From Hymenobacter edaphi (GTDB taxonomy: Bacteria > Bacteroidota > Bacteroidia > Cytophagales > Hymenobacteraceae), in NCBI RefSeq assembly GCF_003258365.1, contig NZ_QHKM01000016.1, positions 1 through 41,605 of the forward strand: a stretch of 41,605 nt of DNA, written 5' to 3'. Each line of letters opens with the position of its first letter. Positions within the stretch are counted from its first letter, which is position 1. A model generated the notes under the pieces. It saw nothing but the letters and a program-made list of their open reading frames with translations. It did not search any database and was not told the DNA's origin. The translations under genes and the position numbers were made by a program. This document shows positions 7,150 to 39,835 of this stretch, in pieces.

Positions 7150-7225
7150 ATGAGACATGAGAAGTGAGACAGGCTTCAGTAACGACCCCTTAAACAAGTC
7201 GTCCGTCTCACTTCTCATGTCTCAT
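7150..7225. repeat. Word-type inverted repeat, ureF-ureG gap
   Basis: A perfect 21-bp arm (7150-7170, ATGAGACATGAGAAGTGAGA plus C) returns as its complement at 7205-7225, with a 34-base loop. The arm is made of near-repeats of GAGACAT/GAGAAGT. It fills most of the 102-base gap. Confidence 0.85.
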
Positions 7226-7234
7226 TGTCCCATA

Positions 7235-7906
7235 CTAGTTTTGAAACAGCTTGGAGTAAATGTCGTCGTGGAGGGTCTGGGCGGTGTCGAGCAGGAAGGC
7301 CGAGCGCGTGGCCTGCTGGTAGCCGCGGCCGGCGTGCTGAGTCAGCAGCTCGTCGAACACCGCGTAGAAGTCGTGCTGCAGGCGGTGGCCCTCCATCGGG
7401 CCGATGACGCCCAGGCGGATGGCCGCGCTGATCTGGTCGCGCAGGGCCATGTGCAGGTACATCGTCTGGATATCGGGGGCGGCGCAGCCCAGGCGCGTGA
7501 GGGCCAGGCCGAAGGCCGGGACGAAGTGCAGCGGCCGCCCGGCGTGTTCGTGCCAGGCGGTGAGCTCGGCCAGGTGGGCGTCGGGGTAAAACGATTCGAG
7601 CAGCCGCAGCCAGTTTTTGGCCTGCACCAGGCTGGCGCGGTGCAGCGCGGGCACCAGCAGCAAGGCGTCGTACTCTTCGGCCACGGCCAGCAGGCCCGCA
7701 TCGAGGCTGGCGTGGTGGCAGCAGCTGAGCAGAAACGGCAGCTCCAGGCTGGCCGCCTGCTGCAGAAAGGAGTAGAGGTAGTTGCGCAGCTCAAACCCCG
7801 TGCGCACCAGCCCGAACGCGACGCTGCTCTCCAGCCCGTACGAGTACGCGAAGGCGCCCGTCGGAATGGCGGAATCCGTGAGGTGCAGCAGGCGGGCGAA
7901 GTGCAT
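7235..7906 (-). CDS. ureF: Urease accessory protein UreF
   Basis: A 223-residue helical protein that joins UreD and UreG in the urease activation complex and is thought to control the timing of GTP hydrolysis. The start at 7906 gives MHFARLLHLTDSAIPTGAFAYS, which matches the family N-terminus (usually LxLLQLxDSxFPxGxFxHSxG). Further marks are YGLESSV and, near the C-terminus, RLGVIGPMEGHRLQ. The upstream part of the open frame lies in an inverted repeat and is not expected to be translated. It lies between ureG and ureC with repeat hairpins in both gaps. Confidence 0.92.
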   Translation of the reverse strand: MHFARLLHLTDSAIPTGAFAYSYGLESSVAFGLVRTGFELRNYLYSFLQQAASLELPFLLSCCHHASLDAGLLAVAEEYDALLLVPALHRASLVQAKNWLRLLESFYPDAHLAELTAWHEHAGRPLHFVPAFGLALTRLGCAAPDIQTMYLHMALRDQISAAIRLGVIGPMEGHRLQHDFYAVFDELLTQHAGRGYQQATRSAFLLDTAQTLHDDIYSKLFQN

Positions 7907-7928
7907 GTGGGTAGAAGTGAGGCTATAA

Positions 7929-8007
7929 GACACGAGAAGTGGGACGAGCGTCAGCAACGGCACCGCTCAACGAAACCGTTGCTGACGCTCGTCCCACTTC
8001 TCATGTC
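7929..8007. repeat. 32-bp inverted repeat, ureC-ureF gap
   Basis: Arms 7929-7960 and 7976-8007 pair at 31 of 32 positions around a 15-base loop. The outer part reuses the GAGACATGAGAAGTG word seen at 7150; the inner part is GACGAGCGTCAGCAACGG. It takes up most of the gap between ureC (stop at 8029) and the ureF start at 7906. Confidence 0.9.
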
Positions 8008-8028
8008 TCACAATCCCATGTCTCGGTT

Positions 8029-9744
8029 CTAAAACAAATTATACAGCTGGGCCAGCGGCAATTTGGTGGCCGGCTCGCAGGTCAGGTGCACGCCGTCGAC
8101 GGTGACGCGGTAGGTTTCCGGGTCCACCTCGATGTTGGGCAGGTAGTCGTTCAGGGCCATGTCGCGCTTCTGCACGCTTCGGCAGCCCTTCACCGCCACC
8201 ACCCGCTTGCGCAGCCCGTACTGCTGCCGCACGTGCGCCACCGAGGCCTGCGACACGAACACCACCGATGTCGGCCCGAGGGCCGCGCCGAAGGAGCCGA
8301 ACATGGGCCGCGAAAACGAGGGCTGGGGCGTGGGAATGGAGGCGTTGGCGTCGCCCATCTGGCTTTGCACGATGATGCCGCCTTTGACGACCATTTCGGG
8401 CCGGGCACCGAAAAAAGCCGATTTCCAGAGCACCAGATCGGCCAGCTTGCCCACTTCCACCGAGCCGATTTCGTCGCTGAAGCCGTGGGCGCGGGCGGGG
8501 TTGATGGTGTACTTGGCCACGTAGCGCCGGGCGCGGAAGTTGTCGTGCCCGCGGCCGTCGTCCTCGGGCAGCGGCCCGCGCTGCTGGCGCATCTTGTGGG
8601 CCGTCTGCCAGGTGCGCGTAATGACTTCGCCCACCCGGCCCATGGCCTGCGAGTCGGACGAAATGATGCTCAGCGCGCCCATGTCGTGCAGAATGTCCTC
8701 GGCGGCAATGGTTTCGCCCCGGATGCGGCTTTCGGCGAAGGCCACGTCTTCGGGAATGTTGCGGTCGAGGTGGTGGCAGACCATGAGCATGTCCAGGTGC
8801 TCGTCGATGGTATTCACCGTGAAGGGCCGCGTGGGGTTGGTGCTCGACGGAATGACGTTCGGCTCTCCGCAGATTTTGATGATGTCCGGCGCGTGGCCGC
8901 CGCCCGCGCCCTCGGTGTGGTAGCTGTGGATGGTGCGCCCCTTGAACGCCGCCGTCGAGGTTTCCACGAAGCCGCTTTCGTTGAGCGTATCGGTGTGGAT
9001 GCACACCTGCACGTCGTATTCTTCGGCAATGGTCAGGCACTGGTCGATGGCCGCCGGGGTGGTGCCCCAGTCCTCGTGCAGCTTGAAGCCCAGGGCGCCA
9101 GCCTCCACCTGCTCGCGCAGGCCCTCGGGCCGGGACGAGTTGCCCTTGCCCAGGAAGCCGAAGTTGAGCGGCCAGGCCTCGGTGGCCTTGAGCATCATCT
9201 CGATGTAAAACGCGCCGGGCGTGCAGGTGGTAGCGGTGGTGCCGGCCGCCGGACCGGTGCCACCGCCCACCATCGTCGTCACGCCCGAGGCCAGGGCTTC
9301 GGGTATCTGCTGGGGGCTAATGAAGTGGATGTGGCAGTCGATGCCGCCGGCGGTGAGGATGAGCCCCTCGCCGGCAATGACTTCCGTCGTCACACCCACC
9401 GTCATGCCCTCGGTCACGCCCGGCATGATGTGGGGGTTGCCGGCCTTGCCGATGCCCGAAATGCGCCCGTTTTTCACTCCGATGTCGGCCTTGTAGATGC
9501 CGGTGTAGTCGAGCACCAGGGCGTTGGTGATGACCAGGTCCAGCGCCTCGGCCTGGCTGATGCCGGCGGCCTGGCCCATCCCGTCGCGCAGCACCTTGCC
9601 GCCGCCGAACTTGCATTCCTCGCCGTACACGCAGTAGTCCTGCTCGACTTCAATCACGAGGTCGGTGTCGCCGAGGCGCACCCGGTCGCCCACCGTGGGG
9701 CCGTACATATCGGCGTAGGCGCGCCGGGCTAGGGAGAGGGACAT
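8029..9744 (-). CDS. ureC: Urease subunit alpha
   Basis: The 571-residue catalytic subunit, full length, that hydrolyses urea to ammonia and carbamate. All active-site residues can be found: nickel ligands H138 and H140 (GGIDCHIHF), the carbamylated lysine K221 (GFKLHEDWG), H250 (CIHTDT), H276 ([11 protein letters not shown]), D364 (SSDSQAMGR), plus the mobile-flap pair C323-H324 (MVCHHLD). The start [17 protein letters not shown] is normal. Only 3 bases separate its ATG from the stop of the upstream small gene, so the two are probably translationally coupled. Nothing suggests inactivation. Confidence 0.98.
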
Positions 9745-9747
9745 AGG

Positions 9748-38511: not shown

Positions 38512-38518
38512 TGTTGGG

Positions 38519-38622
38519 TTTGTCATCCTGGGCGCAGCGAAGGACCTTATCACGTCCGCGCCTGGGGTTTCTTACTCTGATGAAGGCCGCCGTGATAAGG
38601 TGCTTCCTTCGTCAGCATGACA
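38519..38622. repeat. REP-like inverted repeat, nuoC-nuoD gap
   Basis: TTGTCATCCTGGGCGCAGCG (38519 on) and CTTCGTCAGCATGACAA (ends 38622) are the outer arms; ACCTTATCACG (38543-38553) and CGTGATAAGGT (38590-38600) pair perfectly inside. Member of the GTCATGCTGAG family with more drift. Confidence 0.8.
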
Positions 38623-38628
38623 AATGGG

Positions 38629-39198
38629 TTATCGGCCGAAGAAGAGGTCGGTTTTGTCTTCGCGGGTGCCGTCTTCCAGCGGGTACTCCTTGCGCATGGG
38701 GTGGTAGTCCATGTCCTCCACGTTCAGGATGCGGATCAGGTTGGGGTGCCCGGTGAAGATGATGCCGTAGAAGTCGAAGGCTTCGCGCTCCATCCAGTTG
38801 GCGGTGGCGTAGATGTCGGTCATCGTTGGCACCACCGGATCGGCGATGGGGAAGAAGATTTTCAGGCGCAGCCGGATGTTGTGGATCATGCTGTGCAGCT
38901 GGTACACCACGCTCAGCTCCTCGCCCTGGCGCTCGGGCCAGTGCACGCCGCACATGGTGGTCAGGAAGTTGAGCAGCAGCTCCTTCTCGCCGTGCAGCAC
39001 GTCCAGGATTTCGTGGATGCGGTGCCGGCTGACGGTAGCCGTGAGCAGGCCGTAAGGCTCCTCCACGTCCGAAAACGTATCGGCGCCGAACAGGCCGTGC
39101 AGGCGCGCCAGCAGCTGCTCGTTGCTGATGGCCGCGTGGGCTTTCACGTAATCCGCCGCCTTGGCCTGGGCCGCCGGCGAAGTGTTGAGGTCGGTCAT
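38629..39198 (-). CDS. nuoC: NADH-quinone oxidoreductase subunit C
   Basis: 189 residues, the 30-kDa-type subunit of the peripheral arm. Marks: LHSMIHNIRLRLKIFFP, VPTMTDIYATANWMEREAFD, FYGIIFTGHPNLIRIL and, at the end, HPMRKEYPLEDGTREDKT. It is separate from nuoD, not fused as in E. coli. Start MTDLNTSPAAQAKAADYV at 39198. Confidence 0.96.
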   Translation of the reverse strand: MTDLNTSPAAQAKAADYVKAHAAISNEQLLARLHGLFGADTFSDVEEPYGLLTATVSRHRIHEILDVLHGEKELLLNFLTTMCGVHWPERQGEELSVVYQLHSMIHNIRLRLKIFFPIADPVVPTMTDIYATANWMEREAFDFYGIIFTGHPNLIRILNVEDMDYHPMRKEYPLEDGTREDKTDLFFGR

Positions 39199-39204
39199 TC
39201 TGGG

Positions 39205-39265
39205 AGGAGTTAGGAGACAGAAGCCAGGAGGTAGGAAGCCGATGTGATTCTGGCTCCTAACTCCT
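39205..39265. repeat. Word-type inverted repeat, nuoB-nuoC gap
   Basis: AGGAGTTAGGAGACAG (39205-39220) pairs with 39250-39265 at 15 of 16 positions, and further AGGAG/CTCCT words extend both sides (up to 39238 and 39279). It fills nearly the whole 79-base gap. Confidence 0.85.
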
Positions 39266-39277
39266 AGCTCCTAACTT

Positions 39278-39835
39278 CTACTTGATATTATAGGACGCCA
39301 GCAGGGCCTGGTACTCGGGCGAGTTGCGGCGGCGAATCGACTCGTTCTTGGCCAGCTCCTGCACGCGCATCAGGCCTTCGAGCACCTGCTCGGGGCGGGG
39401 CGGGCAACCGGGCACGTACACGTCGACGGGGATGATGCGGTCGATGCCCTGCAGCACGGAGTAGCTGTCGAAGATGCCGCCCGAGGAGGCGCAGGCGCCC
39501 ATGGCCAGCACCCAGCGGGGCTCGGCCATCTGCTCGTACACCTGCTTCACGATGGGGGCCATCTTCTTGGCAATGGTGCCCATCACCATCAGCAGGTCGG
39601 CCTGCCGGGGCGAAAACGACGGGCGCTCCGAGCCGAAGCGCGAAATGTCGTAGTGGGCGCCCATGGTGGCCATGAACTCGATGCCGCAGCAGGAGGTGGC
39701 AAAGGGCAGGGGCCACAGGGAGTTGGCGCGGGCAATGCCCACCACCTTGTCCAGGGAAGTAGCGAAGAAACCGGCACCCTCAACCCCTTCCGGGGCGGCT
39801 ACGGTTTTGATTTCAGGAACGCGGGTATCACTCAT
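39278..39835 (-). CDS. nuoB: NADH-quinone oxidoreductase subunit B
   Basis: 185 residues. It holds cluster N2, the last one before quinone; the ligands are the tandem Cys of [11 protein letters not shown], then MGACASSGG and [10 protein letters not shown]. Start at 39835 ([20 protein letters not shown]); the open frame continues 14 codons upstream to 39877, possible but less typical. Confidence 0.97.

What the first reader, a model, noticed from the sequence alone, without database searches (positions are those of the whole stretch)
7150..39279. Operon gaps filled by inverted repeats made of short words, a different word at each site
At least seven gaps between same-strand neighbours (7150, 7929, 11019, 28359, 29700, 33998, 39205) hold long inverted repeats whose arms are strings of one short word: GAGACAT/GAGAAGT, ATGGTTAA, GAATGAGT, AATGTG, CGTT, AGGAGTT. 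Arm length is 14-32 bases and the loop 15-80. The architecture is constant and the sequence is not, so ordinary dispersed repeats do not explain it. They could be mRNA hairpins that set gene dosage or stability inside the urease and complex I operons, made by slippage and arm-to-arm gene conversion. I know of no described class that fits.
Basis: partly seen in the sequence, partly recalled or inferred. Interest (0 to 1): 0.75.

Follow-up and report, generated by a model that had tools for sequence, protein, structure and literature searches.

The report
Operon-junction hairpins built from short words
In Hymenobacter bacteria, short gaps between neighbouring genes of an operon are often filled by a hairpin whose two arms repeat a 7-8-letter word, and at one respiratory-gene junction a hairpin is found in nearly every species examined although its sequence has been swapped for a different one again and again.

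Summary
All seven gaps hold inverted repeats: four pass my word filter (7150, 28363, 33997, 39205), 29700 is word-like by eye, 7929 is half word, 11019 has an arm inside a gene's end. Units are 7 nt (73 of 101 hairpins) or 8 nt (22). At nuoB/nuoC, 52 of 54 Hymenobacter-clade genomes have an unusually stable structure (45 an ungapped repeat); in 30 of 30 sister-genus genomes the genes abut. The window and its four closest species carry five different hairpins there; by parsimony sequence class changes 33 times, hairpin presence 5 times. U-tracts: 0 of 49. Words are not private: they form dispersed families, one (GGTGANNT) at about 70 or more sites, mostly oriented with the operon. 'No described class' is too strong: heptanucleotide hairpins between cyanobacterial operon genes and Xanthomonas inverted heptamers are in print. 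New here: the Bacteroidota setting, the many-word vocabulary, and retention of a hairpin while its sequence is replaced. Most likely they are sequence-independent intercistronic mRNA structures; that role is inferred, not shown.

The parts
7150..7225 (-). ureF/ureG word hairpin (GAGACAT/GAGAAGT), arms 7150-7170 and 7205-7225
   Evidence: word self-similarity p=0.005; passes word filter
7928..8008 (-). ureC/ureF hairpin, arms 7928-7960 and 7976-8008, only the outer part word-like
   Evidence: word p=0.53
11019..11128 (-). hairpin between a NicO-like gene (below Pfam cut-off) and ureAB (ATGGTTAA words), arms 11019-11033 and 11114-11128; the latter lies in the end of the upstream gene
   Evidence: 14 of 15 complementary
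28363..28454 (-). nuoK/nuoL word hairpin (GAATGAGT)
   Evidence: (p=0.005)
29700..29792 (+). AATGTG hairpin between a sigma-factor gene (29080-29682) and 29838-30224
   Evidence: word p=0.075, does not pass the filter
33997..34087 (-). nuoG/nuoH word hairpin (CGTT)
   Evidence: (p=0.005)
39205..39279 (-). nuoB/nuoC word hairpin (AGGAGTT), the best-studied junction
   Evidence: p=0.19 on the bare arm, passes with extended arms
35127..35280 (-). nuoF/nuoG hairpin of another kind (perfect 38-bp arms, GTCATGCTGAGC... palindrome seen elsewhere in the genome), not word-built

Best explanation
These are intercistronic stem-loops of polycistronic mRNA, the Hymenobacter counterpart of the heptanucleotide-repeat (STRR) hairpins of filamentous cyanobacteria. 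At nuoB/nuoC the hairpin starts about 5 nt after the upstream stop codon and ends about 13 nt before the next start codon, has no U-tract, and so separates two cistrons without being an intrinsic terminator. What is kept at such a junction is a stable stem, not a sequence, so a hairpin of another family can replace the resident one. Inferred, not shown: the stem works as a barrier to 3'-to-5' RNA decay and as a translation-uncoupling spacer, so that the genes on either side can be expressed at different levels; stems of 7-8-nt words are favoured because repeat units are easily made and re-made by slippage and by exchange between copies.
For: Junction-specific presence: nuoB/C inverted repeat >=12 in 45 of 54, fold z<-2 in 52 of 54; nuoA/B, which also has room (median gap 63.5 bp), 2 of 54; nuoB/C 0 of 30 in Adhaeribacter/Pontibacter/Rufibacter/Sabulibacter; shuffled nuoB/C gaps 2 of 540. 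Turnover with retention: 33 class changes against 5 presence changes at nuoB/C; at nuoC/D, F/G, G/H, I/J the counts are 17/16, 16/13, 17/12, 18/13. Window against H. jeollabukensis: flanks 92-100% identical, gap 53-60%, fourfold sites 85%. T-run after the 3' arm in 0 of 49. Rarity in divergent gaps. The GGTGA family has an asymmetric loop and lies mostly in operon direction: of 51 copies with a gene within 25 nt upstream, 47 upstream genes run the same way; downstream 40 of 52. Coordinated arm changes between G000 and G003 orthologues: 5 against 0.9 expected, maximum 4 in 500. Both arms share word deviations: arm-to-arm identity 0.906, word-to-word 0.720 in 101 hairpins, 0.904 against 0.849 with word order permuted.
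Against: No expression data. Compensatory changes inside homologous class A2 do not exceed shuffles (3 pairs against 2.6). At most nuo junctions hairpins come and go, which fits tolerated insertions. Absence at nuoD/E (0 of 53) and nuoE/F (2 of 54) partly restates that those gaps are short (medians 21 and 27 bp). 9 of 54 nuoB/C gaps lack an ungapped repeat >=12, 5 of 54 one >=11 (one of them, L122, is among the window's four nearest), and 2 of 54 do not reach z<-2. In GGTGA orthologues one-sided changes that break a pair (17) slightly outnumber those that keep it (14). Families with tens of copies look like spreading elements. The class count depends on a 0.68 identity cut-off and on a quick tree.
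Confidence: 0.55

Rival explanations
1. Small selfish or passively spreading hairpin elements (MITE- or REP-like) that survive in operon junctions because insertion elsewhere is harmful; replacement is insertion or ectopic conversion, with no benefit to the host.
For: Dispersed families: AGTATTGAG type 1-22 matches in 11 of 14 genomes, TTAGGAG type 18 in G000, GGTGA family 146 and 143 matches, both strands counted, in G000 and G003, with lineage-specific expansion (0 in G002 and G004). The same nuo and ure junctions hold palindromes of other kinds in some species.
Against: In the two families whose copies I compared within genomes (AGTATTGAG, TTAGGAG) arms agree and loops mostly do not; the GGTGA family does keep its loop. 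Presence at nuoB/C is steady while class changes often. GGTGA copies are mostly oriented with transcription. Y1 (RAYT-type) transposase matches are absent from 2 of 8 genus genomes, G001 and G006, which carry such hairpins.
Confidence: 0.3
2. By-product of DNA replication: slippage makes 7-8-nt arrays, snap-back synthesis makes the inverted partner; neutral.
For: Periods 7 and 8 dominate (73 and 22 of 101); tandem arrays without an inverted partner exist; polymerase-footprint slippage is proposed for heptamers in PMC4692102 (passage).
Against: Would not explain hairpins at nuoB/C in 45 of 54 against 2 of 54 at nuoA/B, or their steady presence.
Confidence: 0.1
3. Transcription terminators or attenuators between cistrons.
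For: Stable stems (median dG -42 kcal/mol at nuoB/C).
Against: 0 of 49 have a T-run (5 of the next 8 nt) after the 3' arm; median loop 25 nt; start codon a median 13 nt further on. Stems with loops under 10 nt lie in convergent or long/other gaps in 185 of 247 (own, G004, G005 and 49 nuo loci). Rho-dependent effects are not testable here.
Confidence: 0.05

Closest known systems
Short tandemly repeated repetitive (STRR) heptanucleotide hairpins of cyanobacteria (hupS-hupL, hoxW; nif clusters)
   Same: 7-bp units, hairpin in gaps, among others between hupS and hupL; PMC2670836 (passages) says they are usually 7 bp repeats, of unknown function, and may raise transcript stability or confer translation coupling. 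[quoted passage not shown] its content is recalled.
   Different: Other phylum; here many words per genome, same-site replacement mapped over 54 genomes, some 8-nt units, an oriented high-copy family.
P6b stem of the Nostoc tRNA-Leu intron
   Same: Stem built on one of two 7-nt motifs (TDNGATT or NNTGAGT), one replaced by the other at the same place (PMC4476775, abstract and passages). AGTGAGT/ATTGAGT words here fit NNTGAGT (my reading).
   Different: Intron RNA domain, two motifs only.
Xanthomonas/Nostoc GGGAATC and GGGGA(C/T)T heptamer repeats
   Same: Intergenic heptamers; 70 and 75 inverted pairs in two Xanthomonas genomes; majority between genes of one direction (PMC4692102, passages).
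   Different: Studied for one word per genome and for G-quadruplexes; here many words.
Intercistronic stabilising hairpins (malEFG, papBA, E. coli survey; puf in its reference list)
   Same: Hairpin without uridine tract between cistrons protecting upstream mRNA (PMC5927463, passages).
   Different: Decay measured there, inferred here; word-built arms not mentioned in the passages seen.
TAACTGA direct repeats of Beggiatoaceae, also in cyanobacteria and five Bacteroidetes
   Same: Intergenic heptamers, often near start codons (PMC4679880, abstract and passages).
   Different: Direct repeats; six copies are predicted to form only one pair.

Membership tests
STRR heptanucleotide hairpins | tandem degenerate 7-nt units | tested here: met
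   best period 7 in 73 and 8 in 22 of 101
STRR heptanucleotide hairpins | hairpin in gaps between genes, including co-oriented ones | tested here: met
STRR heptanucleotide hairpins | common descent with the cyanobacterial repeats | not tested
   no cyanobacterial sequence was compared; short, fast-changing words make it hard
REP/RAYT elements | Y1 (RAYT-type) transposase in the genome | tested here: not met
   PF01797 in 6 of 8 genus genomes, no match in G001 and G006, which hold such hairpins
MITE | terminal inverted repeats with conserved interior | tested here: inconclusive
   interior conserved in the GGTGA family, mostly not in the AGTATTGAG and TTAGGAG copies viewed
MITE | target-site duplication and cognate transposase | not tested
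   no clean empty site resolved to the base
Intrinsic terminator | U-tract after the stem | tested here: not met
   0 of 49 nuoB/C hairpins
Rfam families | gathering-score match | tested here: not met
   no hairpin matched in the window, L276, L300 or L138
Intercistronic mRNA stabilisers | longer half-life of a flanking cistron | not testable with these tools
   no RNA data

The most novel reading that the evidence does not exclude
Some operon junctions are 'hairpin slots': selection keeps a stem there but is blind to its sequence, so structure is conserved across a genus while the hairpin itself is replaced dozens of times by unrelated dispersed hairpin families, which covariation methods cannot see; and those families, such as the oriented GGTGA element filling stop-to-start gaps at about 70 or more sites, are mobile parts that bacteria use to re-tune operons.
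Probability: 0.4. Interest if true: 0.8.

Novelty: new variant of a known kind. Interest (0 to 1): 0.62.

Why it matters
If true, RNA structure can be conserved with no sequence homology, so alignment-based searches for functional RNA miss it; complex I and perhaps urease operons of a whole genus would be tuned by exchangeable hairpins. It also gives a natural series (21 sequence classes at one junction by my cut-off) for testing how stem strength sets the ratio of neighbouring genes, and makes the old cyanobacterial puzzle of heptanucleotide hairpins testable in another phylum.

Tried and rejected
A shared loop motif (CGTTCTG) across word families: 4 of 79 loops hold it against 0.25 expected for that 7-mer, but the commonest 7-mer of shuffled loops averages 4.2 (maximum 6); not accepted. 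Homology of the window nuoK/L loop with the GGTGA loop: the model hit (38 bits) comes mainly from the arms; the loop-only test gives p=0.23; rejected (my notebook entry still says homologous). First clustering of nuoB/C gaps at identity 0.62 put 51 of 54 in one class because the null reaches 0.63 at its 99th percentile; replaced by average linkage at 0.68. Private words per site: rejected. Pattern AGTTGTCAGTTGTCAGTTG was in 11 of 296 genomes of the phylum (reversed control in 1), in 7 of the 11 with overlapping runs, so this exact word is not general. Rfam's single window hit (5' ureB sRNA antisense in ureC) is unrelated to the hairpins. Gene calls are from a home-made codon-usage finder; starts may be off by some codons, and overlaps of the sister genera at nuoB/C partly come from my start extension.

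Literature searches for a prior report: (open-licence library only; Hymenobacter + inverted repeats + intergenic + hairpin) found 0 papers.
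Full report
What the window is. It is a complete 41,605-base contig (C7) of a 6.04-Mb genome; the window has 62.6% GC. Its nearest named relatives by five nuo genes are Hymenobacter jeollabukensis and H. gummosus. On the minus strand it carries ureAB, ureC, ureF, ureG and a complex I cluster; nuoB, C, D, F, G, H, J, L, M, N rest on Pfam matches, while nuoA, E, I and K are named from order and size.

The hairpins. Six of the seven gaps are listed as inverted repeats; the seventh scores 12 with one arm in the end of a gene. 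Arms are complementary in register and, in four that pass the word filter, repeat a short degenerate word. Across 101 filtered hairpins with arms of 20 or more in Hymenobacter sequence, the best period is 7 in 73 and 8 in 22; the two arms agree with each other (mean 0.906) more than words within an arm agree (0.720), in 98 of 101. Since hairpins were found by a repeat search, a fairer control is permuting word order: 0.904 observed, 0.849 permuted, 0.717 shifted by one word; observed above control in 74 of 95. In same-strand gaps the 5' arm has more G than C in 100, fewer in 5 and equal in 3 of 108; in convergent gaps more in 5 of 6, so the neighbouring start codon alone does not explain it.

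Where they sit. In 441,605 bases of this genome 78 of 282 gaps hold an inverted repeat scoring >=13 against 0.6 in shuffles. Word-built ones, per same-strand, convergent and divergent gaps of 20-400 bp: this genome 11 in 157, 2 in 40, 0 in 37; G004 4 in 69, 1 in 11, 0 in 11; G005 7 in 76, 0 in 16, 0 in 14; 49 named loci around nuo 86 in 530, 3 in 30, 1 in 48; 30 sister-genus loci 0 in 96, 0 in 10, 0 in 8. Outside these gaps there are 3 in predicted genes in this genome, 2 in longer or other gaps in G004, 9 such and 1 genic in the 49 loci, and 7 in longer or other gaps of the sister genera.

The nuoB/nuoC slot. I took 80 named loci (the best 80 of 106 found) plus unnamed relatives. In 54 genomes of the Hymenobacter clade (window, 49 named including Solirubrum puertoriconensis, 4 unnamed; L162 dropped) the gap is 63-116 bp and 45 have an ungapped repeat scoring >=12, 35 of them word-built; 2 of 540 shuffles do. 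Folding z is below -2 in 52 and below -4 in 43 of 54, median -5.4. In 30 of 30 Adhaeribacter, Pontibacter, Rufibacter and Sabulibacter genomes the genes overlap or lie within 5 bp. Other junctions, repeats >=12: nuoA/B 2 of 54, C/D 25 of 53, D/E 0 of 53, E/F 2 of 54, F/G 22 of 54, G/H 29 of 54, H/I 8 of 54, I/J 27 of 54, K/L 5 of 8. D/E and E/F gaps are too short (medians 21 and 27 bp) to be a fair control; nuoA/B (63.5 bp) is.

Turnover. The window and its four closest species carry five different hairpins (TTAGGAG, TAGTCGG, GAGCTTAGA, a GC-rich stem scoring only 10, AGTATTGAG) although fourfold sites agree at 80-86%; gap identity is 0.51-0.62 against 0.45-0.58 for shuffles. Between window and H. 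jeollabukensis identity is 93-100% before the gap, 53-60% in it, and 92-100% after it, starting with 100%. On a quick tree of nuoB, D, F, G, H 49 hairpins fall in 21 classes with 33 class changes, while presence (repeat >=11) changes 5 times; at C/D, F/G, G/H and I/J class and presence changes are 17/16, 16/13, 17/12, 18/13. Of the five gaps counted as absent, four still fold with z<-2 (L168 does not; L157, counted as present, does not either). The opposite also occurs: H. guriensis and H. psychrotolerans share an identical 81-bp gap while fourfold sites agree at 70%. In the urease cluster of five genomes the ureC/ureF and ureF/ureG gaps hold word hairpins in some and palindromes of other kinds in others; no ungapped repeat >=11 was called for G001 at either junction or for G003 at ureF/ureG, though imperfect arms can be seen.

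Words are families. The nuoB/C hairpin of H. guriensis matches 22 places of its own genome and 1-18 in ten of the other 13 genomes searched, none in the window genome (a palindrome can match on both strands); in the copies viewed arms match and loops mostly do not. The window's own nuoB/C hairpin matches 18 places in G000 and 14 in G003, although G003 uses another word at nuoB/C. Three-unit GGTGANNT has 314 overlapping matches against 2 for the reversed control. Its hairpins have a conserved asymmetric loop; a covariance model finds 146 matches in G000, 143 in G003, 77 in G006, 64 in G001, 4 in G007, 3 in G005, none in G002 or G004. A palindrome matches on both strands, so sites are about half; only 150 candidates per genome were scored, so the large counts are lower bounds. 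Of 57 copies in 52 fetched loci of G000 and G003 (chosen among the best-scoring; 18 junctions occur in both genomes, so copies are not independent), 43 lie between two genes of the element's own direction, 9 between two of the opposite, 4 convergent, 1 divergent; of upstream neighbours within 25 nt 47 of 51 run with the element, of downstream ones 40 of 52. In those 18 junctions 17 keep the family and 1 has another word hairpin (L314 against L321) in its place; the set was fetched for holding the family, so this is no estimate of the replacement rate. In 15 orthologous pairs, stem changes on both sides that keep pairing number 5, against 0.9 (maximum 4 of 500) when the other arm is taken from another pair; one-sided changes keep pairing in 14 and break it in 17 cells, and 1 two-sided change breaks it (the alignment was fitted to the structure).

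Covariation inside classes at nuoB/C is mixed: 3 pairs with both sides changed against 2.6 shuffled in A2; 10 cells against 4.8 in A4, 1 of 500 shuffles as high; A3 has 5 of 26 pairs with such changes, not tested against a control. Related sequences can exceed shuffles without structure, so none of this is strong.

Mechanism. Shown: position between stop and start (median 5 and 13 nt), stable fold, T-run in 0 of 49, mostly direction-bound GGTGA copies, retention with replacement at nuoB/C. Inferred: that the RNA stem, not the DNA, matters; that it blocks decay or uncouples translation. Known hairpins of this behaviour are the E. coli intercistronic stabilisers (PMC5927463, passages); in Anabaena nif1, stem-loops near processing sites go with a longer nifH1 half-life (PMC4284476, passages). 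The G-rich-first rule could keep C-rich, G-poor RNA, a Rho entry signal (recalled, not tested), from being exposed before it is paired; this is speculation.

Verdict. The class is not wholly new: heptanucleotide hairpins between operon genes are known in cyanobacteria and inverted heptamers in Xanthomonas. Within the searches named in Tried and rejected I found no report for Hymenobacter or of clade-wide hairpin retention with sequence replacement.

Noticed in passing
G000 and G003 genome-wide, e.g. L276:1501-1606, L300:1501-1606: Dispersed ~106-nt element with GGTGANNT arms and conserved loop, about 70 or more sites per genome, mostly oriented with the operon and filling stop-to-start gaps; lineage-specific (no match in G002, G004).
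   Followed up: partly
window 35127-35280: Perfect 38-bp inverted repeat GTCATGCTGAGCCTGTCGAAGCATCTC..., similar palindromes at L052, L056 and L071.
   Followed up: partly
window 28790-31460: The nuo cluster is interrupted between nuoK and nuoJ by a stretch with a plus-strand sigma-factor gene; the nuoJ-nuoK distance is also long (median 1445 bp) in the 49 loci where both genes were found.
   Followed up: no
window 9748-10273, between ureAB and ureC: A small ORF without Pfam match lies between ureAB and ureC; G001 has a similar sequence, G003, G016 and G011 a different one at the same place, like a cargo slot.
   Followed up: no
window 26052-26411, nuoL/nuoM: A 363-bp gap with a possible small ORF in G000; G002 (575 bp) and G007 (390 bp) have other inserts at the same junction.
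   Followed up: no
window 9297-9591 (+): Rfam match to 5' ureB sRNA (RF02514, 111.5 bits) antisense inside ureC; may only reflect conserved coding sequence.
   Followed up: no
L138:9854-9934 and the same gap of L148: Identical 81-bp nuoB/C gap in H. guriensis and H. psychrotolerans although fourfold sites of nuo genes agree at 70%: shared recent acquisition or strong constraint.
   Followed up: partly
G005:C1:3367091-3367159, G034:C27:43016-43140: Long tandem TTAGGAG-type arrays; at the G005 array no inverted partner was found within the limits.
   Followed up: partly
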